This document shows, one piece after another, positions 7,920 to 34,923 of a stretch of 64,000 nucleotides of DNA (position 1 is the first letter of the stretch; each line of letters begins with the position of its first letter). Made by a program: the position numbers and the translations under genes. The notes below the pieces were generated by a model. The model searched no databases. It saw only the letters and a program-made list of their open reading frames with translations, and had not been told where the DNA came from. The stretch is taken from assembly GCF_002251795.1 (NCBI RefSeq), contig NZ_NOXU01000023.1, positions 62,001 to 126,000 on the forward strand. The letters run 5' to 3'. Source of the DNA: Niveispirillum lacus (GTDB lineage Bacteria; Pseudomonadota; Alphaproteobacteria; Azospirillales; Azospirillaceae).

Positions 7920-7947
7920 TTGACAGGCTGAAATTTTCCCATATTTT
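7920..7947 (+). promoter_or_regulatory. Candidate promoter of the eCIS operon
   Basis: A perfect TTGACA (7920-7925) is followed after 16 bases by TATTTT (7942-7947) in an AT-rich stretch about 55 bases upstream of the first eCIS gene. It is the best sigma70-like match in this gap and would serve the long plus-strand operon. The start site is not proven. Confidence 0.45.
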
Positions 7948-7999
7948 AACTGTTAGTCATATTACTGCGGTCATACTTCCAAAACGCCCTGGAGGCGAT

Positions 8000-8563
8000 A
8001 TGCTCGACCGGGCGCTATTGTTCATTCGGGACACTCTCGACGCTCACTTGCGGAGCACGCTGTCTCTATCTGAACCGATTGTTGTTTTGAACCATCTGCA
8101 GACCGGGGAGGGGGCCACCAGCCAGAAGAACCAAAATCGCGTTATCATGGCCCTGACCAAGATTGAATACGAGCCGTCCAGGCAATTTTATAATGAAAAA
8201 ATTGGCAGTAGCGGAAAGACAAATAAGCCACCAGCACAGTATTTTAATTTGAATATTATGATGGCTGCCAATTTTGATGATTATATAGAATCCCTGAAAG
8301 TGATGTCGAATGTCATCATGTTCTTTCAGGCCAACAGTAGCTTCAAACGTTCTTTACTGCCGAATATGCCAGCGGAACTCAGCCTGCTGGAAATTGAGAT
8401 TGAAAACACCTCAGACGCCAAATCCTTTGAAATCTGGAGCGCCCTGGGCGCCACCTATCTGCCATCCCTCATCTACAAGGTCCGTCGTCTGATCATTGAT
8501 GCCGATCAGATCAGTGGCTTCACCGCTCCTCTCCAGCTTCCGATAACGGAGGTTGCACAATGA
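8000..8563 (+). CDS. eCIS tail-terminator protein, DUF4255/Pvc16 family
   Basis: A 187-residue protein of the DUF4255 (Pvc16_N) family. It begins with MLDRALLFIRDTLDAHL, has the central FNLNIMMAANFDDYIESLK segment, and ends with an LPITEV tail. In Afp/PVC particles this protein caps the distal end of the sheath-tube. It is the first gene after the candidate promoter, with a GGAGG ribosome-binding site 5 bases before the ATG. Its stop overlaps the next start (ATGA). Codon use is more AT-rich than in the following genes. Confidence 0.85.
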   Translation: MLDRALLFIRDTLDAHLRSTLSLSEPIVVLNHLQTGEGATSQKNQNRVIMALTKIEYEPSRQFYNEKIGSSGKTNKPPAQYFNLNIMMAANFDDYIESLKVMSNVIMFFQANSSFKRSLLPNMPAELSLLEIEIENTSDAKSFEIWSALGATYLPSLIYKVRRLIIDADQISGFTAPLQLPITEVAQ

Positions 8564-9369
8564 GTGACTGCCTTCTGCGACTGCTGATTGACCATGATTG
8601 GTATGGTCAACATCCGGTCACCGGGCTTGCCTTGGTGCCAAACCGCGAGACCGAGGCTGTTTTGCGTCGCTTTGACCTGTGGTGGCGACAGACTGCCGGG
8701 GGCTGGACCCTGTTCAGTGGTCGCGGCGGCCCGGCAGCGGCAATATTGGATGGCCTTGACCGCGCGTTAAACGGGCGGCCGCTCTGTCTCGGTTTTACCG
8801 GTGATCTGACGCATCTTGCCCGTGTCACCGCCTTGCCGGCAGGGGCGACGACCCTGCCCCATTTCACCACGCGGGCCCTTCAGGACAGGACCGACGCGGG
8901 CGCGACGGGTTGCATCCTGTCACCACAATCGGGCGCTGGGGTGCCGATGGCGACCGTTTGGTTGTACCCGGCCGACCTCGCACTTGTGCCAGCAGGGACA
9001 ACCTGGCGGATCTGTTTTCAGGCGGCGCAGGTGCCCTGGGCCTATTTTGTCGTCAATCGCAGTCAGAACCCGCTCCATCAGCCCTTTATTCGGACATCGG
9101 ACGGGCATCTGCTGTCCGGTCCGACGCAGACCCAGCTCCCCGATGGTGAAAATGCCCTGCGTTTCGATACGGGCGGGCAGCCCTGGACATTCAGCAAAAC
9201 GCCTGACAGGGGTCTGGGTCTTTACGACTGGTTCCGCTCGCCGCTGTCAGACCAGACAACCGAGATCTGTCTGATCCGGTCCCTGCCCCTGCCGGACCCC
9301 GGTTCCATGCTCTGGCACGGCGAGGGGCCGGATCGGCGGATTGAAGCGGCCGCAACTGTTTATCTCTAA
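8560..9369 (+). CDS. Hypothetical eCIS-locus protein
   Basis: A 269-residue protein without a recognised domain, signal peptide or membrane span. It is rich in Trp (WWRQTAGGWTLFSG near residues 41-56; TWRICFQAAQVPW near 148-160) and Pro, and predicted beta-rich. The four-base overlap with the terminator gene and the position just before the sheath gene tie its expression to the particle. It may be a cap accessory or assembly factor; that is inference from position only. Confidence 0.6.
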   Translation: MSDCLLRLLIDHDWYGQHPVTGLALVPNRETEAVLRRFDLWWRQTAGGWTLFSGRGGPAAAILDGLDRALNGRPLCLGFTGDLTHLARVTALPAGATTLPHFTTRALQDRTDAGATGCILSPQSGAGVPMATVWLYPADLALVPAGTTWRICFQAAQVPWAYFVVNRSQNPLHQPFIRTSDGHLLSGPTQTQLPDGENALRFDTGGQPWTFSKTPDRGLGLYDWFRSPLSDQTTEICLIRSLPLPDPGSMLWHGEGPDRRIEAAATVYL

Positions 9370-9441
9370 CGCAGCGTGACCGATGGTGCCGGTTGGGAAA
9401 CCGCCGGCGCCGACATCACCCCAGACAAGGAAGAGGCGATC

Positions 9442-11019
9442 TTGGCAACGTATTCGACACCGGGCGTTTACATCAACGAGGTCAACGCCTTCCCAAATTC
9501 CGTCGTGCCCATCGCAACCGCCGTGCCTGTTTTCATCGGGTATACACCCCGCGCGGATTACGAAGGCAAATCCTATTACAACAAGCCGGTCCGCATCACC
9601 TCTTTTGCGGAATACCAGGCCTATTTCAGCTTGCCCAGCCCACCAGCGCCGGCGGATGCGACCCGTCAATATTCACCGCAATATTACCTGGTGGCACAGG
9701 ATAAGGAGCCGGAGGTTGGTCCCCATTTCGGGGTCGGTGGCAAATTCTACTCCGTACTGCCCGATCCCAATACGATCTATTATATGTATAACAGCATCCG
9801 GCTGTTCTATCAGAATGGCGGGAGCGATGCCTGGATCATCTCCGTCGGCCCCTATGGTCCGCCCAGCGGCAAGCCTTTGGATGATGCCAAGACCCCGTTG
9901 GTCAATGCCAACGTCAAGCTGGCCGATCTGCAGCGCGCTCTGGATCTGCTGAAAATCGAACTGGAACCGACAATCTATGTCTGTCCGGAAGCGACATTGC
10001 TGCCGGCTGCCGATAATGCCACGCTCACGCAAAGCATGTTGTTGCAGGCACAGGAGCTGCAGACCACCGTCTGTCTGTTCGACGTGATCAATGGCAACCA
10101 GCCTGACCCGATTCAGTATACCCAGGATATCGAAGCCTTTCGTAACAGCACCGGCACGCATGGTCTGAAGTACGGGATCTGTTATTACCCGTTCATCGGC
10201 ACCACCATTATGCAATCCGGCGAGATTGACTTCACCAACCTGTTTGGTGGTGACATCAAACAACTGGCACCGCTGCTGGACAATCCGACAAGCCCCAACC
10301 CGGTTGCCGCCAAAATCATCGACATGATCCAGAACCCGCCCGCCACGCCACTGACCACCAGTCAGTTGCATGCGGCCCTGACCAATGCCAGCAAGACCTA
10401 TGCGCTGATCATCAAGCAGGTGATGAATGTGGCCAATCTGCTGCCACCCAGCGGCGCCATGGCCGGGGTCTATACTGTCAATGACAACACGGCCGGGGTC
10501 TGGAACAGCCCTGCCAATACCAGCATCGTCGGCGCGGCCAGTCTGCCCATCAAACTGACGGACAGTCAGCAGGCCAATCTGAACGTGGATGCGGTATCCG
10601 GCAAATCCATCAATGCCATTCGTTTCTTCAACGGGCAGGGCATCCTGGTATGGGGCGCGCGCACCCTGGACGGCAACAGTCTGGATTGGCGCTATATCTC
10701 GGTCAGGCGCACCATGATCTTCCTGGAACAGTCGGTGAAACTGGCGGCCCGCGCCTATGTGTTTGCGCTGAATAACGCCAATACCTGGGCGGCCGTGAAA
10801 AGCATGATTTCCAGCTTTCTCACCGATGTCTGGAAACAAGGCGGGCTGCTGGGCGCCAAACCCAACGATGCCTTCTCCGTATCGGTCGGTCTGGGCACGA
10901 CGATGACGGCCGAAGACCTGCTGAACGGCTACATGCGCGTGACGGTTCTGGTCTGCGTTGTCCGACCGGCCGAATTCATCGAGATCACGTTCCAGCAGCA
11001 GATGGCCAAGTCCGGCTGA
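9442..11019 (+). CDS. Contractile sheath protein
   Basis: A sheath protein of about 525 residues from TTG 9442, which has a GGAAGAGG ribosome-binding site just upstream and gives the usual sheath N-terminus ATYSTPGVYINEV. An in-frame GTG at 9376 would add 22 unlikely residues. The C-terminal part has the conserved sheath fold: VWGARTLDGNSLDWRYISVR, then an RTMIFLEQSVKLAARAYVF block, and a final domain ending FIEITFQQQM. The family polymerises around the tube and contracts to drive it through a target envelope. Only one sheath gene is present, whereas Afp and PVC carry several paralogues. Confidence 0.93.
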   Translation: MATYSTPGVYINEVNAFPNSVVPIATAVPVFIGYTPRADYEGKSYYNKPVRITSFAEYQAYFSLPSPPAPADATRQYSPQYYLVAQDKEPEVGPHFGVGGKFYSVLPDPNTIYYMYNSIRLFYQNGGSDAWIISVGPYGPPSGKPLDDAKTPLVNANVKLADLQRALDLLKIELEPTIYVCPEATLLPAADNATLTQSMLLQAQELQTTVCLFDVINGNQPDPIQYTQDIEAFRNSTGTHGLKYGICYYPFIGTTIMQSGEIDFTNLFGGDIKQLAPLLDNPTSPNPVAAKIIDMIQNPPATPLTTSQLHAALTNASKTYALIIKQVMNVANLLPPSGAMAGVYTVNDNTAGVWNSPANTSIVGAASLPIKLTDSQQANLNVDAVSGKSINAIRFFNGQGILVWGARTLDGNSLDWRYISVRRTMIFLEQSVKLAARAYVFALNNANTWAAVKSMISSFLTDVWKQGGLLGAKPNDAFSVSVGLGTTMTAEDLLNGYMRVTVLVCVVRPAEFIEITFQQQMAKSG

Positions 11020-11058
11020 CCTTCAGCGCCGCCACCGTCACTTGCAAATTAGAGAGGT

Positions 11059-11523
11059 ATGATCATGGCCGGTGAAGTAGAAGATAATGTATGGCCGTTG
11101 CCGAAATTTCGCTTTGAAGTGGATTTCGGTTCGGAGTTGAAGGGCATCGCCTTTCAGGAAGTGTCCGGCATGGACGCAGAGGTGCAGATCATCGAATATC
11201 GCCACAGCAACAGTCCCCTGTTCTCGGCAATCAAGATGCCGGGCATTGCCAAGTACAGCAATGTCACCATGAAACGCGGCGTGTTCGTGAATGATAATAC
11301 GTTCTGGAACTGGATGAACGAAATCAAGATGAACACCATCAAACGTCGAACGGTGTTGATCAGGTTGCTGGACGAAAGCGGTAAGGTCACCATGCTGTGG
11401 ACATTGAATAATGCCTGGCCGACCAAGATCACCAGTACCGATCTGAAATCAGATGGCAACGAGGTGGCGGTGGATACGATTGAAATCGCGCATGAGCAGA
11501 TTGTGGTGACCAACGGGGGGTAA
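11059..11523 (+). CDS. Inner tube protein 1 (T4 gp19-like)
   Basis: A 154-residue tube protein of the T4 gp19 / conserved phage-tail family. Marks are PLPKFRFEVDFGSELKGIAF, FQEVSGMDAEVQIIEYR near residues 32-48, the KRGVF turn, and the WTLNNAWPTKITSTDLKSDG block near the C-terminus. By family knowledge such subunits stack as hexamers inside the sheath. A GAGAGG ribosome-binding site supports ATG 11059 or 11065. It is followed after three bases by a second tube gene. Confidence 0.9.
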   Translation: MIMAGEVEDNVWPLPKFRFEVDFGSELKGIAFQEVSGMDAEVQIIEYRHSNSPLFSAIKMPGIAKYSNVTMKRGVFVNDNTFWNWMNEIKMNTIKRRTVLIRLLDESGKVTMLWTLNNAWPTKITSTDLKSDGNEVAVDTIEIAHEQIVVTNGG

Positions 11524-11526
11524 CGG

Positions 11527-12006
11527 ATGCCCGGTCTGCTCTCCAATCTGGCTGATTATGTAGGGTCGCTGAACGAGCTGCAGCCCAGTTTCTACTTCGG
11601 GGTCAGCGTTCTGCCCTTTGCCCTGGACGCCGCCTTTCAGGAAGTCTCGGGCCTGTCCAAACAGATGGAAGTGGAGGAAGCGGTCAGCGGTGGCGAGAAC
11701 CGTTTCGCCTACCGTCTGCCGGGCCGGGTTAAATATGAGAATCTGGTCTTGCGCCGTGGCGTGGCCATCAGCGGGGCCGCCTTTTCGGTCTGGTGTGCGT
11801 CGGTCCTGGACAGTGATTTCGCCACACCCGTGAAGACCATGGATGTGCTGGTCACCTTGTACAACCACCAGCATATGCCAACCATGGCCTGGAACGTCAT
11901 CGGGGCCTATCCGGTGAAATGGAGCATGAGCGACCTGAAATCACAGGAGAATGCCCTGCTGATTGAAACCATCGAACTGGCCTATCGCCGGTATGTGCTG
12001 GTTTAG
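11527..12006 (+). CDS. Inner tube protein 2 (Afp5-like)
   Basis: A 159-residue paralogue of the preceding tube protein with the same landmarks: FQEVSGLSKQMEVEEAVSGG, VLRRGVAISG, and WNVIGAYPVKWSMSDLKSQE. The two are clearly distinct in sequence. In eCIS, a second tube-type protein forms the ring joining the tube to the spike, which is the likely role here. The gene starts three bases after the first tube gene with a strong G-rich ribosome-binding site. Confidence 0.88.
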   Translation: MPGLLSNLADYVGSLNELQPSFYFGVSVLPFALDAAFQEVSGLSKQMEVEEAVSGGENRFAYRLPGRVKYENLVLRRGVAISGAAFSVWCASVLDSDFATPVKTMDVLVTLYNHQHMPTMAWNVIGAYPVKWSMSDLKSQENALLIETIELAYRRYVLV

Positions 12007-12030
12007 CACTGATCGCAAACAGGAGAAGGC

Positions 12031-12201
12031 ATGCCCGTCGAAATTCGAGAACTGGTCATCAAAACCTCCCTGGAAACCGGGACGGCGGACCGGCAGGCGC
12101 AGGAGCGGCGGGCAGAGTTTCAGGCCTTGCGGCGCACCCTGCTGGAGGAATGCGAGCGCATGCTGCGGGAAAACCAGGGCCGCAAGCGCTTTGATCGCTA
12201 G
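12031..12201 (+). CDS. DUF5908-family small eCIS protein
   Basis: A 56-residue protein, MPVEIRELVIKT at the N-terminus followed by a charged helical tail rich in Arg and Glu. The PVEIREL start is the signature of DUF5908, a short protein found between tube and LysM genes in eCIS loci. The ATG has an AGGAGAAGG ribosome-binding site 1-9 bases upstream. It lies 24 bases after the tube gene and 9 bases before the LysM gene. Its molecular role is not established. Confidence 0.8.
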   Translation: MPVEIRELVIKTSLETGTADRQAQERRAEFQALRRTLLEECERMLRENQGRKRFDR

Positions 12202-12210
12202 GAACAAACC

Positions 12211-12891
12211 ATGGCCAATCTGACCATCACCGGATATAGCGACGAAAAATTCAGCAGCAAGGCACCGGCGCCCAACCAATATGTGGCGATGCTGAACCCG
12301 TCCAGTATCGATCTCGGCCGGTCGGTTGAGTATAGCGAGAATAGCAGCGGCACTTCTGCGGCGGCCCCGAAATTCAAGCAATTACCCAGTGAAACCTTGA
12401 GTTTTGAATTGACCATTGATTGTACCGGTGTGGTCGATGACACCCGTGTGGACCTGAAGACGGAGTTGGAAACGCTGTCGGCCGTGGTGCGCGATTACAA
12501 AAGCGACACGCATCGGCCCAATTATGTGACCGTGGTCTGGGGTGACACGCTGAATTTCAAGGGCGTGCTGACCAACATGAGCGTCAACTACACCTTCTTC
12601 AAACCCAATGGCGGGGCGTTGCGCGCCAAGGTGAAGCTGGATTTCCGCTCCTATATCGATGCCTCAACCCTGGCCAAACAACAAAACCAGCAGTCGCCGG
12701 ATGTGACCCACCATGTCCTGGTGCGGGAGGGTGACAGCCTGCCGCTGATCGCCCAGACAATTTATCGCCGGCCGGATTTTTTTGTGGCCCTGGCCAAGGC
12801 CAACCGTCTGGACAAATTCCGGCACCTGGCCGGCGGGACAATTTTGCTGACGCCACCCCTGAAATCCACGGGGGGCAAACATGGCCGATGA
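12211..12891 (+). CDS. LysM-domain hub/tube-initiator protein (Afp7-like)
   Basis: A 226-residue protein with an N-terminal tube/hub-like domain (about 1-150, with LNPSSIDLGRSVEYSE, ETLSFELTIDCTGV and VTVVWGDTLNFKGVL). A C-terminal LysM-like domain runs about 166-220 (HHVLVREGDSLPLIAQTIYR to ILLTPPLK). This matches the Afp7 / T4 gp53-gp48 type adaptor that joins tube, spike and baseplate. The LysM here is thought to bind protein within the particle rather than peptidoglycan. The gene overlaps the spike gene by 11 bases. Confidence 0.85.
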   Translation: MANLTITGYSDEKFSSKAPAPNQYVAMLNPSSIDLGRSVEYSENSSGTSAAAPKFKQLPSETLSFELTIDCTGVVDDTRVDLKTELETLSAVVRDYKSDTHRPNYVTVVWGDTLNFKGVLTNMSVNYTFFKPNGGALRAKVKLDFRSYIDASTLAKQQNQQSPDVTHHVLVREGDSLPLIAQTIYRRPDFFVALAKANRLDKFRHLAGGTILLTPPLKSTGGKHGR

Positions 12892-14665
12892 TCCGGATGG
12901 CGGGCTTGCCTCCTACACCATCACTGTAAACGGTACTGCCATCCCCACTGAATATCAGGTGTCGTCGATCGACATTGAACAATCGGTCAACCGTATTGCG
13001 CGGGCCGCCATCATGTTGCCGGACGGCGACGCTTCATCCCAGGATTTTGCGGTCAGCAGCGCCGACACCTTTGTCCCCGGCGCCACGATCAGCATCCAGT
13101 TGGGCTATGACAATACCAACAAGGAGGTGTTTTCCGGCATCATCACGGGTCAGCGCCTGTCCTTGACGACCGGGGGCCACTCCACCCTGGAAGTGGAATG
13201 TCGGGACAAGGCGGTCCTGCTGACTGTGGGGCGGAAATCCTCGGCCTATGCCTCGTCCAAGGATAGTGATGCCATATCGACCATCCTGTCCAATGCCGGG
13301 CTCACCGCTGATGTCGCCGCCACGACAGTACAGCAGGAGGCGTTGATCCAATATGACAGCACAGACTGGGATTTCATCGTCACACGTGCCGAAATCAATG
13401 GGTTCCTGGTTCTGACCCTGAACGGCACCGTCAAGGTCTTCGACCCGCTCAACCAAACTGATCCGTCGGTCACCATTACCCAGGGTATTGATCTTTTCGG
13501 CTTCGATGGTGTGCTGGATGCGGTTGGCCAGGTGGATGAGGTCAGTGCCAGCGCCTGGGATCCGGCCACCCTGAAATTGATCAATGCCAGCGCCAACGCC
13601 AGTTTTGCCGGGCCGGGCAACCTGACGACCAAGAAGCTGGCCGGTGATCTGGGCCAGGGTACGCTGAACCTGCAGACGGCGGGCGCTGAAACCAATGATG
13701 CCCTGACGGGATGGGCAAAGGCGCAGGTGGCCAAAAGCACGTTGGCGAAGATTGTCGCAACAGCAACCCTTCAAGGGCGATCCGATCTGACACCGGGGCA
13801 GACCGTGGCCCTGGCGGGTTTGGGTGGGCGTTTCAACGGCACGCACCTGATAACCGGCATCCGCCACCGTCTGCGTGAGGGCAACTGGACCTGCGACCTG
13901 TTGTTGGGCCATGAACGGCAGTGGTTCGTGCAGGAACATGATGTCAGCACGCCCGCGGCGGCGGGCCTCCTGCCTGCGATCAGCGGGTTGTTCTGCGGCA
14001 CGGTCCTGAAGATCGACAGCGACCCCGGCAATGGCTTCCGGATCCAGGTGGAAATCGCCCTGTTCAATGACAATAATGCCGGCATCTGGGCACGCATGGC
14101 GCATTTCCATGCCACCGATGGGGCCGGGGCTTTTTTCCTGCCAGAGGTCGGGGATGAGGTTCTGGTGGGGTTCCTCAATGCCGATCCCCGGTTCCCCGTG
14201 ATCCTGGGCAGCCTGTACAGCAAGGACCGCAAACCCAACAGCGCCCTGACGCCGGACAGCAAAAACAGTCACAAGGCGGTCTACACCAAAGCCGGCTCGT
14301 TCCTGGATTTCAACGACGAAGACAAGATCATCACCCTGTCGACACCGGGCGGCAACAAACTGGTTCTGGATGACAAGAACGGTCAGATCCAGCTTGTCGA
14401 TCAGAATGGAAACAGCCTCCAGATGGACAGCAGCGCCATTGCCCTGAAAAGCGCGGCCGCCCTGAATGCCCAGGCGGCGACCACCATGTCCTTGAAGGGC
14501 GATAATGGCATCACCGCCGAAAGCAGCGGCGGCGATGTCAGTGCCAAGGGCACGAATTTGTCCCTGACCGCCAACGCCCAATTGACCGCCAAAGGCAGTG
14601 CCAGCGCCGAAATCCAGGGCGGTGCGCAACTGACGCTGAAGGGCGGCATGGTCATGATCAACTGA
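12881..14665 (+). CDS. VgrG-like central spike protein (Afp8-type)
   Basis: A 594-residue spike. The N-terminal gpD-like domains span about 1-355 (LGYDNTNKEVFSGIITGQ near 70, YDSTDWDFIVTRAEINGFL near 155). A gp5-type OB fold follows at about 361-450 (GLFCGTVLKIDSDPG, FFLPEVGDEVLVGFLNADPR). The C-terminal part (about 480-594) is a repetitive beta-helix prism (LSTPGGNKLVLDDKNGQIQL and similar strands). Trimers form the membrane-piercing spike carrying the PAAR tip. No extra effector domain is fused at the C-terminus. It begins within the 3' end of the LysM gene and is followed by the PAAR gene. Confidence 0.92.
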   Translation: MADDPDGGLASYTITVNGTAIPTEYQVSSIDIEQSVNRIARAAIMLPDGDASSQDFAVSSADTFVPGATISIQLGYDNTNKEVFSGIITGQRLSLTTGGHSTLEVECRDKAVLLTVGRKSSAYASSKDSDAISTILSNAGLTADVAATTVQQEALIQYDSTDWDFIVTRAEINGFLVLTLNGTVKVFDPLNQTDPSVTITQGIDLFGFDGVLDAVGQVDEVSASAWDPATLKLINASANASFAGPGNLTTKKLAGDLGQGTLNLQTAGAETNDALTGWAKAQVAKSTLAKIVATATLQGRSDLTPGQTVALAGLGGRFNGTHLITGIRHRLREGNWTCDLLLGHERQWFVQEHDVSTPAAAGLLPAISGLFCGTVLKIDSDPGNGFRIQVEIALFNDNNAGIWARMAHFHATDGAGAFFLPEVGDEVLVGFLNADPRFPVILGSLYSKDRKPNSALTPDSKNSHKAVYTKAGSFLDFNDEDKIITLSTPGGNKLVLDDKNGQIQLVDQNGNSLQMDSSAIALKSAAALNAQAATTMSLKGDNGITAESSGGDVSAKGTNLSLTANAQLTAKGSASAEIQGGAQLTLKGGMVMIN

Positions 14666-14677
14666 AGGAACCACGCC

Positions 14678-14974
14678 ATGCCACCGGCCGCCCGCCTCAG
14701 CGATTTTCACCAATGCCCGATGGTCACACCGGGCCTGCCGCCGATCCCGCATGTTGGCGGCCCCATCGCGGCGGGCGCGCCGACTGTGCTGATCTGCAAT
14801 ATGCCAGCGGCCCGGGTTGGTGACATGGCTGTGTGTGTCGGCCCGCCCGACAGTATCGTCAAAGGTTCAGCGACCGTGATGATCGCGGGTATGCCGGCGG
14901 CCCGGATGGGGGATACGACCGCCCATGGCGGCACCATTGCGCTGGGGGCGCCCACTGTCATGATCGGGGGCTGA
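14678..14974 (+). CDS. PAAR-domain spike-tip protein
   Basis: A 98-residue PAAR protein: MPPAARLSD at the N-terminus, internal repeats NMPAARVGDMA and GMPAARMGDTT, and a Gly-rich APTVMIGG end. His and Cys residues (DFHQCP, VCVGPP, TAHGG) could hold the metal typical of the family. It sharpens the spike tip. It lies 12 bases after the spike gene with an AAGGAA ribosome-binding site, and carries no C-terminal toxin extension. Confidence 0.9.
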   Translation: MPPAARLSDFHQCPMVTPGLPPIPHVGGPIAAGAPTVLICNMPAARVGDMAVCVGPPDSIVKGSATVMIAGMPAARMGDTTAHGGTIALGAPTVMIGG

Positions 14975-14976
14975 CC

Positions 14977-24925: not shown

Positions 24926-24970
24926 AATCTGTCCTGTTTCAGCCATTCTACGCCGACAAGGGGAAGCACG

Positions 24971-26899: not shown

Positions 26900-26971
26900 A
26901 ACATCCAGGCCGTGCCGCGGGTTCGGCGACGACGCCCGCCGAAACCAATCCCATGCTCACAGGAGACCGCC

Positions 26972-27763: not shown

Positions 27764-27962
27764 CGGCCCTGTGATGAATAACCGCGTTTCTGGCTGTGCT
27801 GATGACCTTGATCCCATATCACCGCCCGCCTGTAAAAATGCCGGTGCCACAGGCAATGGGTAATCGACCTTGAGAAAAGAATAATAAAATCAGGCAGAAG
27901 AGAAAAAAGCATCCCTATATACGACAACATCAGCACAGCAGCGGTAATTGATGGAGATAGAG

Positions 27963-28769
27963 ATGGGTTTCGTTCCATATCAACTCAGATCAGTGAATAA
28001 TAATAAACATAGAAACAATAATACGAAATTATCACTAATAGATTATCGAAGTGGCGTTCAGCCAACGCAACTGACTGACAATCGGAAGCATGATAAAACG
28101 CCGCACCAGTTAAAAAGTAAAGTCACCAACAAAGGTCAATACTATAAGTGGGGCAATAAACAGCAAACGCTTGTTGGCGAAACCATGATTGCTTTCCTGG
28201 ACCCGGCCTATCCGTTGCAAGGCCAATCTGCGGCTTTGAACAGCGATCAGGACGATATGATGAGTTGGATTAAATCCCAAAACAATATCAATGCCGCAGG
28301 GGCGGTGAAGGGGCACCTGTTAAACGATAATCTTGGTGGGACTGCCATGAATGCAAACCTGTTCCCGCTGACAAAAGCAGCAAATGCCGTTCATCTGAAA
28401 ACGGCGGAGAATGATGTAAAAAATAAGGTATGGAATGACCAGACACCGACATATTATTATGTTGATGCTGAGATTGGTGGCGGCACCATTGATAAGTTAA
28501 CGGGTGAGATCGGGGACTGGAACATGCACACCAATAAAGTGAGCAATTTACGGTCGTTTACGGTTGTATCTCACCTCAAAAAACCTAATGATATGGAAAC
28601 AGCCAACCCTGATGACAATGATTATGTAAAGGCAGAGCAACGCAATGCTGCGGCCTTCAGCCATGGGTTGGCACTGAAACCACATTCTAGAGTATCTGAA
28701 CTGAACGATGATTGGGCTGGCTTAAGAGACATTAGCGGGTCGACAACAAAATTTACATATGAAAGCTAA
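27963..28769 (+). CDS. Candidate eCIS cargo with nuclease-like GHLLN domain
   Basis: A 268-residue protein from ATG 27963, which has a GGAG ribosome-binding site; TTG 27948 is a weaker option. The N-terminus is Asn/Lys-rich and includes SLIDYRSGVQPTQLTDN, which loosely resembles the DNRPEAVAQRQL segment seen before DUF4157 domains. The middle has VKGHLLNDNLGG, then NLFPLTKAANAVH and an E-x-x-VKNKV helix, a pattern I associate with DNA/RNA non-specific endonuclease-like toxin domains. The gene is strikingly AT-rich against its neighbours, which suggests recent acquisition. It could be a secreted toxin loaded in the tube. The nuclease assignment is tentative and catalytic residues are not proven. 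Confidence 0.6.
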   Translation: MGFVPYQLRSVNNNKHRNNNTKLSLIDYRSGVQPTQLTDNRKHDKTPHQLKSKVTNKGQYYKWGNKQQTLVGETMIAFLDPAYPLQGQSAALNSDQDDMMSWIKSQNNINAAGAVKGHLLNDNLGGTAMNANLFPLTKAANAVHLKTAENDVKNKVWNDQTPTYYYVDAEIGGGTIDKLTGEIGDWNMHTNKVSNLRSFTVVSHLKKPNDMETANPDDNDYVKAEQRNAAAFSHGLALKPHSRVSELNDDWAGLRDISGSTTKFTYES

Positions 28770-28788
28770 CAAATTTCGATAGACGTTG

Positions 28789-29133
28789 TTATTTTAACTT
28801 CTCAACCCTATCCTTCGTCGTTTCCGCCAGGCAGGCATTTAATACCGCACCATACATGGTTCCACCCTGTACCGCGGCCGCTTCGGCCTTGCAGTGGCTA
28901 TCACGATATTTGATCCAGTCGCGTTGCGCCTGCTTTAAGGCGTCCTGGCGCGCGGGGTCCAGCGTGGCCATGACCTCCTTATAGCGCTCATTCAACTGCT
29001 TGTCCGCCTGGGCGTAGGCTTCAGCAGCACATGTGTTCATCGCGGCCTGATCAACAGCATTCTCACAGTCATCAGCGTAAGCCGGCGTAATCCCAAACAG
29101 AATGACCAGCATCATAGCGGATAGACAACGCAT
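28789..29133 (-). CDS. LprI-family lysozyme-inhibitor-like protein
   Basis: A 114-residue exported protein: signal peptide MRCLSAMMLVILFGITPAYA, then DDCENAVDQAAMNTCAAEAY and LNERYKEVMATLDPARQDAL, ending with RDWIKYRDSHCKAEAAAVQG. The four conserved Cys and the WxxYRDxxC block are the lysozyme inhibitor LprI / DUF1311 signature. The start at 29133 is chosen for its GGAAGGAAC ribosome-binding site. It is transcribed against the surrounding eCIS operon and ends 20 bases from the cargo candidate. Some members inhibit lysozyme; here it could guard the producer against the GH108 muramidase encoded 5 kb away. Confidence 0.82.
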   Translation of the reverse strand: MRCLSAMMLVILFGITPAYADDCENAVDQAAMNTCAAEAYAQADKQLNERYKEVMATLDPARQDALKQAQRDWIKYRDSHCKAEAAAVQGGTMYGAVLNACLAETTKDRVEKLK

Positions 29134-29326
29134 GTTCGGTTCCTTCCGGGCGCCTGACATTAAAAGCGTATCCAGCCGGCATCAGCGATGCAAACGTTTT
29201 CGGGCATAGGCCATAATTTTATTTATGGTTATATTTTTGCTGTCGGCACAGCCCGCATTGCGAGTGATGTTTGTTTAATTTATCATATGACTGTGTTGAC
29301 ATCAGACGCGGCTACGGAGAGATGCG

Positions 29327-29845
29327 TTGAGCGCCTACACCCCCGGCACCCCGTTCCAACTGATCTGGAATGATGGTCAAACGGACATGTTGCTGGAGGT
29401 GCCCGTGGCCGGTGCCAATGTTCTGGTCACCAAACATCCCTTGCATGGCAATTCCGGCACCAATGCCTGGGTCCAGAAGCGGGAGGGCGGTCGCCTCTAT
29501 CTGCTGGACGCAACGGGCAAGGCCACTGCCTTCTGTCTGGATGTCAACCTGCCCGATCAGCATGAAGTTAACGGCGTCTTTCCCGATGCCTGTGGGTGTC
29601 TGGTCTATCTGAACACCGATATCCCGCAACGCCAGACACAATTATGGCAGGTCACCGACCGTGGTGATGGCAGTTGCTTTGTGCAGAATATCGGCCTGTC
29701 CCTTTCCATCCAGTTTGGGCCGGGTGCTGGCCCCTATGTGCTGGATTCCGGGGGCAACAACCAGCAGGGCGGGGCGGCGAAACTGTGGAAAAAGGATGCG
29801 GGCAACCGTAACCAATATTGGCAGTTACGGGTATGTCCGGTGTGA
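29327..29845 (+). CDS. Lectin-like (possible ricin-type beta-trefoil) protein
   Basis: A 172-residue protein from a TTG start with a GGAGAG ribosome-binding site; no ATG is available in frame. It is beta-rich, with repeated Gln/Trp elements near strand ends (TQLWQVTDRGDGSCFVQNIG at 103-122; NRNQYWQLRV at the C-terminus) and a GGNNQQGGAAKLWKKDAGN loop, which together suggest a carbohydrate-binding beta-trefoil. It has no signal peptide. Its 3' end overlaps the start of the ATPase gene, so translation is probably coupled. A role in target recognition on the particle is possible but inferred. Confidence 0.6.
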   Translation: MSAYTPGTPFQLIWNDGQTDMLLEVPVAGANVLVTKHPLHGNSGTNAWVQKREGGRLYLLDATGKATAFCLDVNLPDQHEVNGVFPDACGCLVYLNTDIPQRQTQLWQVTDRGDGSCFVQNIGLSLSIQFGPGAGPYVLDSGGNNQQGGAAKLWKKDAGNRNQYWQLRVCPV

Positions 29846-31197
29846 CGGAACTCTCGGTCAATCTGCGGGCCTTGGACCAGGAACTGGACTGGTTTGCCAC
29901 CATCCTGCAGGCGCAGGTGGAAACTTATCTTTCGGCGGACCCGGACCCCTGGGTTTTGCATCGACATCCCCCGCCCGATATCGGGCAGACACCGTCGGCC
30001 CTTGGCCGACTGGTGACGGAATGGGGTCTGGGCGTGCCTGAACGGATCGCGCTGGCCCTGACACTGGCCCCGCATCTGCGACCGCAAATGCTGGACATCC
30101 TGCTTCTGACCAGCAGCCAAACCGGGCGAGTGCTGACGGAATTCGGCGGCATGAACGAGGGGGCATCCCGGGGGTTTCTGCCGACCGGACAGACGCTGGC
30201 CTTTGTGCTGTCCGCGGGCAATCGCGATGCTTGGGCTGATTATCACCATCTGACCGACCGGAACCACCGGCTCATGCGGGAACAGATGCTGCGACTGGAT
30301 GGGGACAGTGATCGTCTGCCGCAGATTGCCAGCCCCTTGCGCCTGTCAGAGGCGTGGCTTCACTATCTGTTGACGGGGGAACCGGCACGACCGGAAACGG
30401 AGCATGATTTCCCGGCCCGTCCGATCCACTGCGCCCAGGGCTGGAACGATCTGGTACTCGACCCGCAGACCATGGCGCAGTTAAACGAAATACGCCTCTG
30501 GCTGACCTATGGGCAGCGCGTCCTGACCGAATACCGATTGGCGGACAAGATCAAACCGGGCTATCGCGCCCTGTTTTTCGGCCCGCCGGGAACTGGCAAG
30601 ACCCTGTCCGCCTGCCTTCTGGGCAAGGTGACCAACCGCGAGGTCTATCGCGTCGATGCCTCCATGGTTGTGTCCAAATATATCGGGGAGACCGAGAAAA
30701 ATCTGGGCCGCGTGTTCGATGTGGCGCAATATCGTGACTGGCTGCTGTTTTTTGACGAGGCCGACGCGCTGTTCGGCAAGCGGACCACCGCCAGCACGTC
30801 GAATGACCGCCACGCCAATCAGCAGACCGCTTACCTTCTGCAACGGATCGAAGATTTCCCTGGGGTGGTGATCCTGTCCACCAATCTGCGGGCCAATATG
30901 GATGAAGCCTTTACCCGTCGATTCCAGTCCATGATCCAGTTCCCGATGCCGGGCCCGGCAGAGCGTCTGCGCCTCTGGCAGGCCGCCTTTGCCGGCAGTG
31001 TCGATCTGGCGCCGGACATCGACTTGAATGAGCTTGCGGAACGCGCCGAGGTTGCGGGCGGGGCGGTGATCAATGTCCTGCGCGCCGTCACGCTGACTGC
31101 GGCCGCGACCAACAGCAAGGTGATCTCCCGCACGAACCTGATCGACGCGCTGCGGCGCGAATTGGCGAAAGACAGCAAAAGCCTGCAATGGAGATAG
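29833..31197 (+). CDS. AAA+ ATPase (Afp15/Pvc15-like)
   Basis: A roughly 454-residue AAA+ protein. Walker A GPPGTGK is at about residues 250-256, Walker B LLFFDEADALFG at about 301-312, and sensor 1 and arginine-finger regions follow (VILSTNLRANMDEAFTRRF). The N-terminal 200 residues are specific to the eCIS type. In Afp/PVC the Afp15 ATPase is needed for cargo loading or assembly. The start is ATG 29833 or TTG 29818; both lie inside the lectin-like gene. It is followed four bases later by the DUF4157 gene. Confidence 0.9.
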   Translation: MSGVTELSVNLRALDQELDWFATILQAQVETYLSADPDPWVLHRHPPPDIGQTPSALGRLVTEWGLGVPERIALALTLAPHLRPQMLDILLLTSSQTGRVLTEFGGMNEGASRGFLPTGQTLAFVLSAGNRDAWADYHHLTDRNHRLMREQMLRLDGDSDRLPQIASPLRLSEAWLHYLLTGEPARPETEHDFPARPIHCAQGWNDLVLDPQTMAQLNEIRLWLTYGQRVLTEYRLADKIKPGYRALFFGPPGTGKTLSACLLGKVTNREVYRVDASMVVSKYIGETEKNLGRVFDVAQYRDWLLFFDEADALFGKRTTASTSNDRHANQQTAYLLQRIEDFPGVVILSTNLRANMDEAFTRRFQSMIQFPMPGPAERLRLWQAAFAGSVDLAPDIDLNELAERAEVAGGAVINVLRAVTLTAAATNSKVISRTNLIDALRRELAKDSKSLQWR

Positions 31198-31201
31198 GGC
31201 G

Positions 31202-31639
31202 ATGGCCGATTTTGTATCGCTGACCAAGCAGCACGCCGCAAAGACAGGACACACCGCCTTAGCGTCAACGGTCCTTCAGGACCGGCGCGGGGACACCCTT
31301 CCCCGACAGTTGAAGGATGAACGCTCGCGCGGCGGCCTGCCTCAACAACTGGCGCATGGCATCGAAAGACTTTCAGGCGTGTCGATGGCTGGTGTGCGGG
31401 TCCATTACAACTCGTCCAAGCCGCAGGCCATGCAGGCCCATGCCTATGCCCAGGGCCGGGATATCCATCTGGCCAGCGGTCAGGAAAAACATCTGCCCCA
31501 CGAAGCCTGGCATGTGGTGCAGCAAAGCCAAGGTCGGGTCAAACCGACGGCAACGGTCAACGGCACCAGCATCAATGACAGCCCCACACTGGAGCGGGAA
31601 GCAGATGTGATGGGCCATCGTGCCATGCAGGGCACCTGA
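31202..31639 (+). CDS. Stand-alone eCIS core-domain (DUF4157) protein
   Basis: A 145-residue protein consisting of a DUF4157 domain: VRVHYNSSKPQAMQAHAYAQ (about 63-82), then GRDIHLASGQ, HEAWHVVQQSQGRVKP at about 100-115, and the LEREADVMGHRA end. HEAWH resembles a zincin HExxH motif. The N-terminal VLQDRRGDTLPRQL segment matches the short QR/QL leader usually found before this domain. Such domains mark eCIS-associated cargo; here no toxin domain is fused, so it may act as an adaptor or protease. It ends nine bases before the convergent membrane-protein gene. Confidence 0.88.
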   Translation: MADFVSLTKQHAAKTGHTALASTVLQDRRGDTLPRQLKDERSRGGLPQQLAHGIERLSGVSMAGVRVHYNSSKPQAMQAHAYAQGRDIHLASGQEKHLPHEAWHVVQQSQGRVKPTATVNGTSINDSPTLEREADVMGHRAMQGT

Positions 31640-31648
31640 CCGCAGGGG

Positions 31649-33208
31649 TCAGCGACCCTCGATCTGATTGCGCGACAATCGATCCAGATCCGCCTTCATG
31701 CTTTGCACCAGCCGGGTCAGGCTGTCGATCGTACGGCGACTTTCTTCTGCTGCACGCTGGGATTCCGCCATGACCTGCGCCATGGCCTCGGATTGTTTGT
31801 CCAGCTTGTCCTGCAATGCGCCGACGCTGGATTGCAGTTTGGCGGCCGTATCCTGTTGTTTCGCCAGGGCGCTATCCATTCCCTTCACCCGTTCCTGCAA
31901 GGCCTTGCTCACCCCGTCATCGGCGGGCGGCGGGGCCGGGGGCGGGGGCGGGGGGGGAGGTGCAGCCAACGGTGCGGGCGGGGGGGCGACGGGTTGGGAC
32001 AGTGACGGCGGCGCGCTTGCAGGACCGGCCGCGACCGACACTGGCCCGGCCGTGGTAGGGTCCGGCGCCGGTGGCGCAGCGGACGCGACCGCCAGCAAGG
32101 AGGGCGGGGTAGCGGCTGCGTCACCGGCGGGTGGTGGGGACGAACCGGTGCCCAGGAACTTGCCCATGATCGTCGCCAGCAGATCGGCATTCGGAAGGCC
32201 GCTATTGCGCAACCATGACCCGGCCTGGGCCTTAACCTCCGTCTGGGCGGCTGACAACAACTGGCCCGCCAACTGTTTTCCTTGCTCCGGTACCTGCAGC
32301 GTGGACAGCGCGGCCGACAGGTCGGCACTGCCCGCCCCCCCGGCCCGTTTGGCCGCCAACAGCCGCCCCCCGCCCAGCAGTGCCCCGCTGATCAGCATCC
32401 ATATGGCGCCCCAGGACGACGCATGCTGATCAATCGGGCGCTGAACGCTGGCGGTTGCTGCGGGCGGAACCGGAATGGTTTGTGGCGCGACACCTGCCGC
32501 TGATGGGGCATTGGTGCGGGGCGGGGGGCATTGGTTCTCCCCTTCCTCATCCTCAGGGTCGGGCTGACCCGCCTTTGCCGGGTCACAGACAAACCCCGGC
32601 TGCGCCGCCGCTTGGCTGTTGGCGCTTGCCGCCGGTTTGGACACCACCATTGTCGGCGCAGGGTTGCCGGACACGGGTTGCAGCGTCAGCGCTGATTGAA
32701 CAGCCAGAAACACTGTCACTGCTGCGGCCAGGCTGGCCAGGGCATAGTGCCCGTCCAGCAATTTGTGCCACGATTTGCGCGGCTGTGGCCAGGATGGTAT
32801 CCGCCCCAGCAGCAAGGGGGGCACGGTCGCCGCCAGGATCATCAATGGCAGGGCGATGCCGTTGGCCATTTCCTGTCTGGTCTGCGCACTGCTCAGCCCC
32901 AGGGCGATACAGGCCCAGATCGACAGGCCCAGCGGCCAGATCAGCAGCAAGGGCAACCAATCCACGCTGAAACGATGCTGGGCTGTGCTGAAAAACCCAA
33001 GGGCTCTGCCGGTGATCATGACGCCGATGGCCAGGAACAACAGCAGAAAACCAATCACGCCGATGGCCCAACTATCGTGAATTGGCACATCACGTAGCCA
33101 GTGGATGACGGTAAACACACAGGCATAAATCGAGACCACATGCACCGCAGCCAGCCGCACCAGCAAAACGACGATCATATTGCGGGCGCCGGGCGCCGGG
33201 CTGGTCAT
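31649..33208 (-). CDS. Polytopic membrane protein with proline-rich linker and coiled-coil tail
   Basis: A 519-residue protein. Residues about 10-180 contain four or five membrane spans (for example AIGVIGFLLLFLAIGVMITG and LASLAAAVTVFLAVQSALTL), and another lies near 265-280 (SWGAIWMLISGALLGGGRLL). A Pro/Ala-rich linker (about 375-440, with runs of Pro) leads to a C-terminal coiled coil (about 445-515). No family is recognised. The start overlaps the preceding gene's stop (ATGA). As part of the operon convergent with the eCIS genes, it may anchor particles or a release factor at the membrane, loosely recalling CisA of Streptomyces CIS; this is inference. Confidence 0.7.
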   Translation of the reverse strand: MTSPAPGARNMIVVLLVRLAAVHVVSIYACVFTVIHWLRDVPIHDSWAIGVIGFLLLFLAIGVMITGRALGFFSTAQHRFSVDWLPLLLIWPLGLSIWACIALGLSSAQTRQEMANGIALPLMILAATVPPLLLGRIPSWPQPRKSWHKLLDGHYALASLAAAVTVFLAVQSALTLQPVSGNPAPTMVVSKPAASANSQAAAQPGFVCDPAKAGQPDPEDEEGENQCPPPRTNAPSAAGVAPQTIPVPPAATASVQRPIDQHASSWGAIWMLISGALLGGGRLLAAKRAGGAGSADLSAALSTLQVPEQGKQLAGQLLSAAQTEVKAQAGSWLRNSGLPNADLLATIMGKFLGTGSSPPPAGDAAATPPSLLAVASAAPPAPDPTTAGPVSVAAGPASAPPSLSQPVAPPPAPLAAPPPPPPPPAPPPADDGVSKALQERVKGMDSALAKQQDTAAKLQSSVGALQDKLDKQSEAMAQVMAESQRAAEESRRTIDSLTRLVQSMKADLDRLSRNQIEGR

Positions 33209-33738
33209 CGCTCCTCCCCGCCGATCTGTTTGACAATGGCCTCGTTGATGCGGGCAATGCCCTGGGCCGATGAACTGCCACGAAACTGGATCTCCACCTC
33301 AGCGGTAGCCTGTTTTTCTCCACCGGCATTGGCCAGATCCAGCATCAGCAAGGACGCACCGTCCGGCCCGGTCTTCTCATGCAGACCGGTTTTCAGGCGG
33401 ATAACAAAATTCTCCACGGCCACATCATGATGATTGGCCAGCAGAAAAAGCGGCACCTCGCGCAGGATGGGGGTGCCATTGGGGCCGGGCAACGGTACCT
33501 GGACCGTCTTGGGGGTCATGCGGCCTGTTTGCGGGTCCAATGGGAAATAACGGGCCAGAAGGTGTTCCAACGAACTATCACAGGCCTGACGCACCTGGGT
33601 AACGACGGACGCGTGAACCGTTTCCAGCAGAGCCGGCAAGGAAATCAGGGCGGGTTCGGCCGGCGGGCCGCTCTTTGCTGCCCCTGCGGTGGCAGGGTCG
33701 CTCTTGTCGGGTTCATGGTCGTGGTCCGGATCTGTCAT
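33205..33738 (-). CDS. DUF2589-like protein
   Basis: A 177-residue soluble protein. After an acidic N-terminus (Asp/His/Pro-rich, 1-28) come VPLPGPNGTPILREVPLFLL and HHDVAVENFVIRLKTGL, then ATAEVEIQFRGSSSAQGIAR and a final INEAIVKQI helix. The pattern of a preferred 'valid-pressure' loop, a beta strand with DF/KI-type alternation and a C-terminal EGLxKVxxxL-like helix resembles DUF2589, which is of unknown function and found near phage-tail-like and eCIS genes. An AGGAG ribosome-binding site precedes the ATG. It lies between the muramidase and the membrane-protein gene. Confidence 0.6.
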   Translation of the reverse strand: MTDPDHDHEPDKSDPATAGAAKSGPPAEPALISLPALLETVHASVVTQVRQACDSSLEHLLARYFPLDPQTGRMTPKTVQVPLPGPNGTPILREVPLFLLANHHDVAVENFVIRLKTGLHEKTGPDGASLLMLDLANAGGEKQATAEVEIQFRGSSSAQGIARINEAIVKQIGGEER

Positions 33739-33753
33739 CGGGGCCGCTCCTGC

Positions 33754-34320
33754 TCAATTGCCGGTTTCACAGGCGGGCGTCGTGCGTCCCGGCACCACGA
33801 CATCCGGAAACGAATTGACGCGCGCAATCCACCCCTTCAGAAAAACGCGCAGAACAGGATGCTCCTGTGCCAGTTCACGGTAATAACTGATCCGCCCTGA
33901 CTTATACTCCATATAGACTTCGGTGGAGTCGTGATCATTGAGCGAGCTCATGATCCGCCGCGTCAACCGGCTGGGGTGATAATTATTGCCAAGCGTGTTC
34001 AGGATTTTCACAAATAACTCAATGGCGTGATATCCAGCATTGACATGGAAGTCACAGAATATGTTGGCCAGATTCTGATATTGTATCTCATCACCAAAGA
34101 TCGGGTCCCAATATTCCACTTTATAAATCCGACCAGCCTGCTCGTCGGTCATTTTCTTAAGATTGGCCAGCGTTGGCGCCATATTCAACAAATGCGCATA
34201 CTTTTTGAATGTATAGAAGGTGATGCCCTTGTTGGTCGCCCCTCCCGGATCATGGGGATTATCGACCCACCCTCCCTCATTCCGCAGGACAATGGGCAGA
34301 AACTGAGAAAAGTCAGCCAT
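33754..34320 (-). CDS. GH108-family N-acetylmuramidase (lysozyme-like)
   Basis: A 188-residue enzyme. The N-terminal NEGGWVDNPHDPGGATNKGI motif (about 14-33), with the proposed catalytic Glu at 15, is the glycosyl hydrolase 108 signature; the second region AGRIYKVEYWDPI follows, then NIFCDFHVNAGYHA. It cleaves peptidoglycan glycan strands in phage endolysins and related proteins. There is no signal peptide, so access to peptidoglycan would need cell lysis, a particle or a holin-like partner. The gene is more AT-rich than its neighbours. Cell release of eCIS particles or target-wall digestion are the two obvious roles. Confidence 0.88.
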   Translation of the reverse strand: MADFSQFLPIVLRNEGGWVDNPHDPGGATNKGITFYTFKKYAHLLNMAPTLANLKKMTDEQAGRIYKVEYWDPIFGDEIQYQNLANIFCDFHVNAGYHAIELFVKILNTLGNNYHPSRLTRRIMSSLNDHDSTEVYMEYKSGRISYYRELAQEHPVLRVFLKGWIARVNSFPDVVVPGRTTPACETGN

Positions 34321-34365
34321 ATTTCTTCCCTTTACGGAGTGTTCGGACCCCGCGTGATGGCGCGT

Positions 34366-34923
34366 TCAAACCCTCATTTCAAACTCGCAGCCGACCGCAC
34401 TGATCTCGATCTGGCGGGCAATGTCGGCGAAAGCGCATTCAAGCGTCAGACCCAGACTGCGGGCCACAAGACATGAAGGGTCAAGGGCGATACGCACGTC
34501 CCCCCACGCCGTCTGGTGGATATCCAATTTTTCACGACGGGTCAGGGTGCGTTCACAATCATGCACAGTAAGGGATTGGATTCGCGCGCCTTTCTGCGCC
34601 CTGAACCGGACCCAGACGGCCGCCACCGGCAGCGCGGCGCCTGTATCCAACACCGGCGCCGGAACGGCGAAATGCAGTTGAACATCCGACCAGGACCGGC
34701 CGTTCACGATCCGGGCATTTCCCTCCACCCGATCACGCTCCAACCCCTGGGCATCGGCAACGGTGGCGCTGGTGCCGTGAACCCAACTGATGGGGTTCTG
34801 CTGGCTGCCGGCCCGTGCCAGACCTGTCCCGAGACCCAGACCGGCCCCGACACTAAGCGCGGCACCAAAGAACGAACGGCGGTTGCCGATGGTGAACTGT
34901 GTCTCCTGCTTTGTGTCCACCAT
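34366..34923 (-). CDS. Tat-signal protein, DUF6623-like
   Basis: A 185-residue protein with a twin-arginine-type leader (NRRSFFGAALSVGAGLGLG, residues 14-32, then AGSQQNP). The mature part has ISWVHGTSATVADAQGLERD, LHFAVPAPVLDTG and AVWVRFRAQKGARIQSLTVH, matching the layout of DUF6623 (a jelly-roll-like fold of unknown function). It is the first gene of the minus-strand operon after a candidate promoter. Tat export of a folded beta-protein next to a muramidase suggests an envelope role. Function unknown. Confidence 0.65.
   Translation of the reverse strand: MVDTKQETQFTIGNRRSFFGAALSVGAGLGLGTGLARAGSQQNPISWVHGTSATVADAQGLERDRVEGNARIVNGRSWSDVQLHFAVPAPVLDTGAALPVAAVWVRFRAQKGARIQSLTVHDCERTLTRREKLDIHQTAWGDVRIALDPSCLVARSLGLTLECAFADIARQIEISAVGCEFEMRV

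What the first reader, a model, noticed from the sequence alone, without database searches (positions are those of the whole stretch)
7920..34923. Complete eCIS (contractile injection system) with an unusual accessory set
Seen: terminator, one sheath, two tube proteins, DUF5908, LysM hub, spike, PAAR, gp25, two large baseplate proteins, tape measure, AAA+ ATPase and DUF4157 protein in one plus-strand run. Unlike the Afp and PVC reference loci there is only one sheath gene and no recognisable fibre. A convergent operon adds a Tat protein, a muramidase, a DUF2589-like protein and a polytopic membrane protein. The combination suggests a particle whose targeting, anchoring or release differs from known eCIS.
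Basis: partly seen in the sequence, partly recalled or inferred. Interest (0 to 1): 0.8.

Follow-up and report, generated by a model that had tools for sequence, protein, structure and literature searches.

The report
Azospirillum injection particle with lysis-like operon
A soil bacterium carries genes for a phage-tail-like syringe particle of a fairly ordinary build, and beside them a fixed set of membrane and cell-wall-cutting genes that may let the particle out of, or anchor it in, the cell that makes it.

Summary
In detail: window 8000-31639 is a complete eCIS on the plus strand, followed by a convergent four-gene operon (34923-31649), in an Azospirillum-like host. One sheath and no annotated fibre are ordinary in this branch (A. 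thermophilum, Aureibacter). What is distinctive is a fixed accessory set. X642, a DUF2589-family protein and DUF6623 occur in the same 3 of 11 genus genomes and not in the 8 others, two of which carry another eCIS; in those three loci GH108, LprI, a lectin-like protein and a polytopic membrane protein are also in place. The membrane protein has a conserved cysteine-pair loop and a conserved C-terminal coiled coil. DUF2589 genes elsewhere lie near unrelated peptidoglycan hydrolases in at least 7 of 14 loci, with no CIS structural gene in the stretches read, so DUF2589 plus hydrolase looks like an independent module joined to this eCIS. Preferred reading: a producer-envelope opening (release) module. 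Rivals: a membrane anchor, or a muramidase effector with LprI as immunity. A low-GC nuclease-like gene found in this genome alone is the likely cargo. New variant of a known kind; the envelope mechanism is inferred, not shown.

The parts
7920..7966 (+). promoter-like region of the eCIS operon: TTGACA-16-TATTTT plus AGTCATATTACT
   Evidence: conserved in 3 of 3 genomes, own included; consensus match only
8000..8563 (+). Pvc16_N/DUF4255 terminator (cap)
   Evidence: Pfam 2.8e-24
8560..9369 (+). X269, probable cap adaptor (Alg16B/Cis16b position)
   Evidence: position after a short cap gene, compare AlgoCIS (passages) and L101/L102; no sequence match to solved chains
9376..11019 (+). sheath (single)
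   Evidence: Pfam; best PDB 9r9h_T 2.1e-121, 7adz (AlgoCIS by recall) 2.4e-82, All3325 of Anabaena 3.8e-79
11059..11523 (+). tube protein 1
   Evidence: Phage_T4_gp19 8.7e-45
11527..12006 (+). tube protein 2
   Evidence: Phage_T4_gp19 8.7e-39
12031..12201 (+). DUF5908 small protein
   Evidence: Pfam 1.1e-11
12211..12891 (+). CIS_tube hub with LysM-like C-terminus
   Evidence: PF19266 3.8e-42; LysM by eye
12881..14665 (+). VgrG-like spike
   Evidence: Phage_base_V 2.3e-19
14678..14974 (+). PAAR tip
   Evidence: 1.6e-24
14977..15411 (+). gp25 baseplate wedge
   Evidence: 1e-14
15412..18903 (+). baseplate protein 1 (Afp11/All3317-like)
   Evidence: PDB 7b5h 5.4e-37
18900..21527 (+). baseplate protein 2 (Afp12 position)
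   Evidence: tblastn to related eCIS
21524..24925 (+). tape measure
   Evidence: CIS_TMP 3e-81
24971..26899 (+). X642, helical N-terminal bundle plus beta domains; accessory
   Evidence: 10 proteins found, itself included; model pLDDT 73; no fold assigned
26972..27763 (+). X283 coiled-coil-like protein
   Evidence: 85-87% identical in sisters
27948..28769 (+). putative cargo: DNA/RNA non-specific endonuclease-like protein
   Evidence: Endonuclea_NS_2 0.0011, below cut-off; GC 0.434 versus 0.61 for the locus; 1 of 11 genus genomes
28789..29160 (-). LprI lysozyme-inhibitor family protein with a hydrophobic N-terminus (signal peptide by eye)
   Evidence: Pfam 3.2e-25; same place in the sisters
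29327..29845 (+). ricin-B-like lectin domain protein
   Evidence: Ricin_B_lectin 0.0043, below cut-off; 85 and 90% identical in sisters, pN/pS 0.14 and 0.09
29833..31197 (+). AAA+ ATPase
   Evidence: 6.9e-24
31202..31639 (+). eCIS_core (DUF4157) protein, HEAWH motif
   Evidence: 9e-11, motif
31649..33208 (-). X519: five TM segments, Cys-pair loop, sixth TM candidate, Pro-rich linker, C-terminal coiled coil
   Evidence: in 10 of 10 members found, 3 of which have a further candidate segment
33205..33738 (-). X177: DUF2589-family protein
   Evidence: hhalign 98.0%, 1.5e-13 to DUF2589 proteins; 5 of 10 members found match PF11655 at 0.01
33754..34320 (-). GH108 endolysin-type muramidase without a hydrophobic N-terminus
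   Evidence: Pfam 3.9e-23; PHROG 315 endolysin 5.7e-30
34366..34923 (-). DUF6623 protein with a twin-arginine-like signal
   Evidence: 1.9e-8; NRRSFFG start

Best explanation
SHOWN: a complete single-sheath eCIS nearest to AlgoCIS/tCIS-type systems, with a lineage-fixed accessory set. INFERRED: the convergent operon is a producer-envelope module. X519 sits in the inner membrane with its coiled coil in the cytoplasm, where it gathers the DUF2589 protein and possibly particles. When triggered, the signal-less GH108 endolysin reaches and opens the cell wall. Particles loaded with strain-specific cargo (here a nuclease-like protein) by the AAA+ ATPase and DUF4157 protein then leave. LprI restrains the muramidase in the periplasm until then, or protects kin. 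The Tat-exported DUF6623 protein acts in the periplasm; its role is open. The operon would thus do the job of the lysis cassette of Afp with different parts.
For: Operon tight and convergent to the eCIS: 4-base overlap, 15- and 45-base gaps, 9 bases from eCIS_core. X177, X642 and DUF6623 occur in the same 3 of 11 genus genomes, and the whole operon lies beside the eCIS in both sisters. GH108 is endolysin-like, lacks a hydrophobic N-terminus and is the best conserved of the four (85 and 91%, pN/pS 0.12 and 0.08). DUF2589 lies near a peptidoglycan hydrolase over the Pfam cut-off in at least 7 of 14 loci outside the genus: GH24, Amidase_3, GH19, Muramidase, SLT, SLT, GH19. Four of the six such enzymes measured lack a hydrophobic N-terminus. 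None of the 14 stretches has a structural CIS gene matching the window's. Afp is described with a lysis cassette upstream (PMC12961389, passages).
Against: No holin or spanin was recognised; X519 at 519 aa is unlike holins I know of (recall). Some eCIS loci are said to lack any lysis cassette (PMC10598620, passages). No expression or lysis data. An LprI inhibitor runs against simple lysis. DUF2589 has no known function, the X177 model is poor (pLDDT 51), and the DUF2589-hydrolase link has no rigorous null: the two Vibrio plasmids are related, neighbours were scanned unevenly, and in the two SLT cases the enzyme has a hydrophobic N-terminus.
Confidence: 0.45

Rival explanations
1. Membrane-anchored firing: X519 works like Streptomyces CisA or the tCIS anchors. 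Its cytoplasmic coiled coil docks the baseplate at the inner membrane; GH108 and DUF2589 open the wall locally so that the particle fires outward from an intact or dying cell.
For: X519 has a long Pro-rich linker and a strongly conserved C-terminal coiled coil in 10 of 10 members found. bp1's best solved match is All3317 of the thylakoid-anchored CIS. No separate fibre recognised.
Against: [quoted passage not shown] DUF2589-hydrolase pairs occur without CIS structural genes nearby, so the pairing did not arise for anchoring. bp2 has no TM segment by hydropathy.
Confidence: 0.25
2. Effector and immunity: GH108 is a cargo muramidase injected into rival bacteria, and LprI is its immunity protein in the producer's periplasm.
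For: LprI-domain proteins are proposed as immunity to T6SS peptidoglycan hydrolases (PMC8867033 and PMC12135965, passages). LprI keeps its place in the eCIS locus in 3 of 3 loci, own included. GH108 has no signal of its own.
Against: The two genes are not adjacent (about 4.6 kb apart, five genes between). GH108 is apparently co-transcribed with a membrane protein and a DUF2589 protein rather than with an immunity gene, and is fixed in all three loci, unlike the nuclease cargo candidate.
Confidence: 0.18
3. Bystander: the operon is a separate DUF2589-hydrolase lysis or toxin element that merely sits beside the eCIS.
For: DUF2589-hydrolase pairs exist without eCIS structural genes.
Against: X177 and X642 occur in the same 3 of 11 genomes and in none of the other 8. 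Five longest-contig lengths, own included, are common to the X642 and X177 hit lists, which suggests shared contigs.
Confidence: 0.12

Closest known systems
Azospirillum thermophilum plasmid eCIS (NZ_CP029358)
   Same: same core gene order, one annotated sheath, DUF5908, PAAR, tape measure, ATPase, no gene annotated as a fibre
   Different: none of X642, X177, X519, GH108, LprI, lectin or DUF6623 matched in the 40.7 kb; its sheath matches only in the C-terminal part and its tape measure is annotated as two genes; its Afp12-position protein carries a glycoside-hydrolase-like domain
Aureibacter tunicatorum plasmid eCIS (NZ_AP025308)
   Same: one annotated sheath, two tubes, short cap gene followed by a 277-aa hypothetical, no gene annotated as a fibre
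   Different: gene order permuted; no accessory set matched
AlgoCIS (Algoriphagus)
   Same: short cap gene plus cap adaptor; sheath similarity 2.4e-82
   Different: has fibre Alg19; no such operon in the passages seen (PMC8894135)
tCIS (Anabaena)
   Same: closest solved baseplate protein to bp1
   Different: anchors are extensions of baseplate and fibre (PMC8894136 passages), not a separate polytopic protein
CisA of Streptomyces CIS
   Same: accessory membrane protein encoded with a CIS, long disordered part
   Different: single TM, periplasmic C-terminal domain; no sequence comparison was run
Afp lysis cassette
   Same: wall-cutting enzyme beside an eCIS (PMC12961389 passages)
   Different: endopeptidase, holin and lysozyme there; DUF2589, polytopic protein, GH108 and DUF6623 here
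DUF2589-peptidoglycan hydrolase pairs in other bacteria
   Same: DUF2589 next to a hydrolase
   Different: usually two DUF2589 copies, other hydrolase families, no CIS structural genes in the stretch

Membership tests
eCIS | sheath, tube, spike/PAAR, gp25, baseplate, tape measure, AAA+, Pvc16, DUF4157 in one locus | tested here: met
eCIS | assembled particle, released and contractile | not testable with these tools
   needs electron microscopy
eCIS | tail fibre | tested here: inconclusive
   no gene between bp2 and tape measure; no fibre Pfam domain in the proteins scanned; eBAP profiles not held; X642 and the lectin remain candidates
Afp/PVC branch | several sheath genes | tested here: not met
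   one sheath gene among the locus proteins scanned
CisA | single TM with cytoplasmic N-terminus and periplasmic C-terminal domain | tested here: not met
   X519 has at least six TM candidates in 10 of 10 members and a coiled-coil C-terminus
tCIS | TM-bearing fibre protein and Cis12 extension | tested here: inconclusive
   bp2 has no TM segment by hydropathy; extension not modelled
DUF2589 (PF11655) | profile match | tested here: met
   window protein itself below the Pfam cut-off (17.5 of 23 bits) but hhalign 98.0%, 1.5e-13 over 147 columns to one DUF2589 subtype; against the other subtype 0.7%
GH108 | PF05838 over cut-off | tested here: met
   82.2 bits versus 21.2; the catalytic meaning of its NEGG motif is recalled
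holin-endolysin-spanin cassette | endolysin | tested here: met
   PHROG 315, lysis, 5.7e-30
holin-endolysin-spanin cassette | holin and spanin | tested here: inconclusive
   no such match for X519, X177 or DUF6623; profile misses do not exclude a new type
muramidase effector-immunity pair | effector loaded in the particle, immunity gene adjacent | tested here: inconclusive
   LprI present but not adjacent; loading not testable here

The most novel reading that the evidence does not exclude
DUF2589 proteins are the common part of an undescribed bacterial envelope-opening module that works with whichever peptidoglycan hydrolase is at hand. One Azospirillum eCIS lineage has taken it over, adding a polytopic membrane protein with a cytoplasmic coiled coil, to build a dedicated exit or firing port for a syringe particle that has no fibre.
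Probability: 0.3. Interest if true: 0.75.

Novelty: new variant of a known kind. Interest (0 to 1): 0.5.

Why it matters
How eCIS particles leave or fire from Gram-negative producers is poorly understood, and loci without fibre candidates are left out of a recent fibre catalogue (PMC12923769, section read). This locus offers a compact, conserved gene set in a plant-associated genus where release, anchoring and effector models can be told apart by single deletions. It also gives a functional lead for the orphan family DUF2589: its repeated placement beside unrelated cell-wall hydrolases.

Tried and rejected
Fibre: X642 was modelled as the candidate. Foldseek gave no match at E 0.001 or below and the structural second look gave generic helix bundles over residues 1-246, so it is neither shown nor excluded as a fibre. 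hhalign finds no kinship between X642 and X283.

X269 as cap adaptor: no sequence match to a solved chain. The equivalent gene in G009 only touches SalCis16b-cap at 0.14. Assigned by position alone.

Shared regulatory motif: a palindrome at 34975-34987 and a possible motif common to three promoters were tested. In the alignment the palindrome is not kept in the sisters; no shared 12-mer stood out from shuffles (only one promoter pair was shuffled). Rejected.

X177 fold: model too poor to search. First hhalign used the wrong DUF2589 subtype and failed; the other subtype gave 98%.

Controls for the DUF2589-hydrolase link: eleven further genes of these loci scanned (nine; two) had no wall-hydrolase match, though some lie close to DUF2589. 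The 129 annotated genes of three stretches of two plasmids had no gene named as a wall hydrolase. This is weak: the SLT enzymes are named as transporter proteins there, the tables are incomplete, and includes a DUF2589 locus.
Full report
WHAT IS THERE. The window lies in an assembly whose nearest named match is an Azospirillum metagenome genome (JAIXTS010000076, which equals G003 contig C130 by length and match). From 8000 to 31639 the plus strand encodes a complete eCIS. Pfam confirms terminator, single sheath, two tubes, hub, spike, PAAR, gp25, tape measure, AAA+ and DUF4157 and DUF5908. The first baseplate protein matches solved CIS baseplates, best All3317 of the Anabaena tCIS at 5.4e-37. 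The sheath is closest to 9r9h (the entry group that holds SalCis16b), then 7adz (AlgoCIS by recall) and All3325; Afp and PVC sheaths score lower.

IS IT UNUSUAL? One sheath and no separate fibre are ordinary in this branch. A. thermophilum and Aureibacter have one annotated sheath and no gene annotated as a fibre, although hypothetical genes there could hide one, the A. thermophilum sheath matches only in part and the Aureibacter order is permuted. Of 11 plasmid records with at least 95% of the sheath covered, ten have it in one piece at one place at E 1e-30 (25 of 62 records listed; several are close relatives, and a diverged second sheath could be missed). Mycetohabitans, the eleventh, has two. 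X269, after the terminator, is by position the cap adaptor known from AlgoCIS (passages), though its sequence matches no solved chain.

THE ACCESSORY SET. Of the 11 genus genomes searched, three (G000, G002, G003) have X177, X642 and DUF6623 (in G002 below the Pfam cut-off). G004 and G009 in the genus, and G028 in another genus of the family, have a different eCIS without them. None of X642, X283, X172, LprI, X519, X177, GH108 or DUF6623 was matched in four plasmid eCIS stretches (L100-L103). GH108 is in 8 of 11 and LprI in 5 of 11 genus genomes, so neither is eCIS-specific, but in the window's genome each is single-copy and sits at the eCIS. G003 is split: parts were found on three contigs. 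X642, X177 and X519 each gave 10 proteins, themselves included, in the 5.8-billion-protein search; it needs shared 5-residue words, and for X642 and X519 only the 8000 best candidates were scored. Five longest-contig lengths (own included) are common to the X642 and X177 lists, which suggests linkage on other contigs. A class sample found no X172 in 336 other genomes (G002 and G003 not in view there).

X519. All 10 proteins found have five N-terminal hydrophobic segments, a loop with two cysteines, a sixth segment (1.45 to 2.06 mean hydropathy), a Pro-rich linker and a strongly conserved C-terminal coiled coil. Three of the ten have a further, weaker candidate (1.42 to 1.57), which if real would turn the C-terminus outward. 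In the window protein the charges between the segments fit N-terminus in, Cys loop in the periplasm, coiled coil in the cytoplasm. This is a hydropathy reading, not a topology measurement.

DUF2589. X177 is a DUF2589 relative. The family is rare: 8 of 398 phylum genomes and 3 of 369 genomes of one class (one shared) carry it. Fourteen loci outside the genus were read: ten from genomes and four plasmids. At least seven have a peptidoglycan hydrolase over the Pfam cut-off close by: L083 GH19, L084 GH24, L085 Amidase_3, L087 GH19, L096 Muramidase, L098 SLT, L097 SLT. In six of these the gaps measured were 28 to 2043 bases, and four of the six enzymes lack a hydrophobic N-terminus. The other seven loci (L082, L086, L088, L089, L094, L095, L099) gave none, but their neighbours were only partly scanned, L094 is a 4.1 kb contig and was not scanned, and L082 is masked over 5000 bases; L086 has a DUF922 protein. 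tblastn with 29 window proteins found no structural eCIS gene in any of the 14 stretches; the only eCIS-type match was a DUF4157 (eCIS_core) protein in L083. The null for the hydrolase link is informal.

MECHANISM. I commit to a producer-envelope opening (release) module at 0.45, with anchoring (0.25), effector-immunity (0.18) and bystander (0.12) as rivals. Release is favoured because GH108 is endolysin-like, signal-less and strongly conserved, because DUF2589 pairs with such enzymes without a CIS, and because Afp is described with a lysis cassette (PMC12961389 passages). LprI speaks for effector-immunity or restraint.

CARGO. The nuclease-like gene has GC 0.434 (locus 0.61; the terminator at 0.479 and GH108 at 0.499 are also low), occurs in 1 of 11 genus genomes and is missing at the same place in the sisters. 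Its Pfam match is below cut-off; of four weak plasmid relatives one is annotated as DNA/RNA non-specific endonuclease and three as hypothetical.

LITERATURE. Searches for Azospirillum with eCIS terms (20 of 80 listed), lysis cassettes (15 of 16), wall hydrolases with CIS (12 of 48) and DUF2589 (one paper, on Archaeoglobus) listed no description of this accessory set by title or abstract start. Only open-licence PMC papers are held. Papers were seen as passages, an outline or single sections.

Noticed in passing
L061/L062 (G197), joined coordinates 28880-30448, minus strand: A lone sheath gene 67-69% identical to the window's, with no other matching eCIS gene within the 40 kb read: an orphan sheath in another family.
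   Followed up: partly
L102:29386-32919: A. thermophilum Afp12-position baseplate protein ends in an Rv2525c glycoside-hydrolase-like domain, a possible built-in wall or glycan enzyme.
   Followed up: no
L085:11576-14317: DUF2589 locus with an amidase followed by a Tle1-like phospholipase: two envelope-degrading enzymes together.
   Followed up: no
L083:2771-11124: DUF2589 genes and GH19 next to a 1756-aa protein with eCIS_core and a Fic-like region, without structural CIS genes matched in 20 kb.
   Followed up: partly
L013/L014 (G009), joined coordinates 2838-24630: A second eCIS type in the genus: single sheath, a 740-aa ORF with an eCIS_core region between baseplate and tape measure.
   Followed up: partly
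window 38001-42000 and 58001-60000: Strong positive AT skew (0.20 to 0.26) compared with the rest of the window.
   Followed up: no
L088:4493-4876 and L097:7416-7835: Mor-type (phage Mu) activator genes close to DUF2589 genes in two loci.
   Followed up: no
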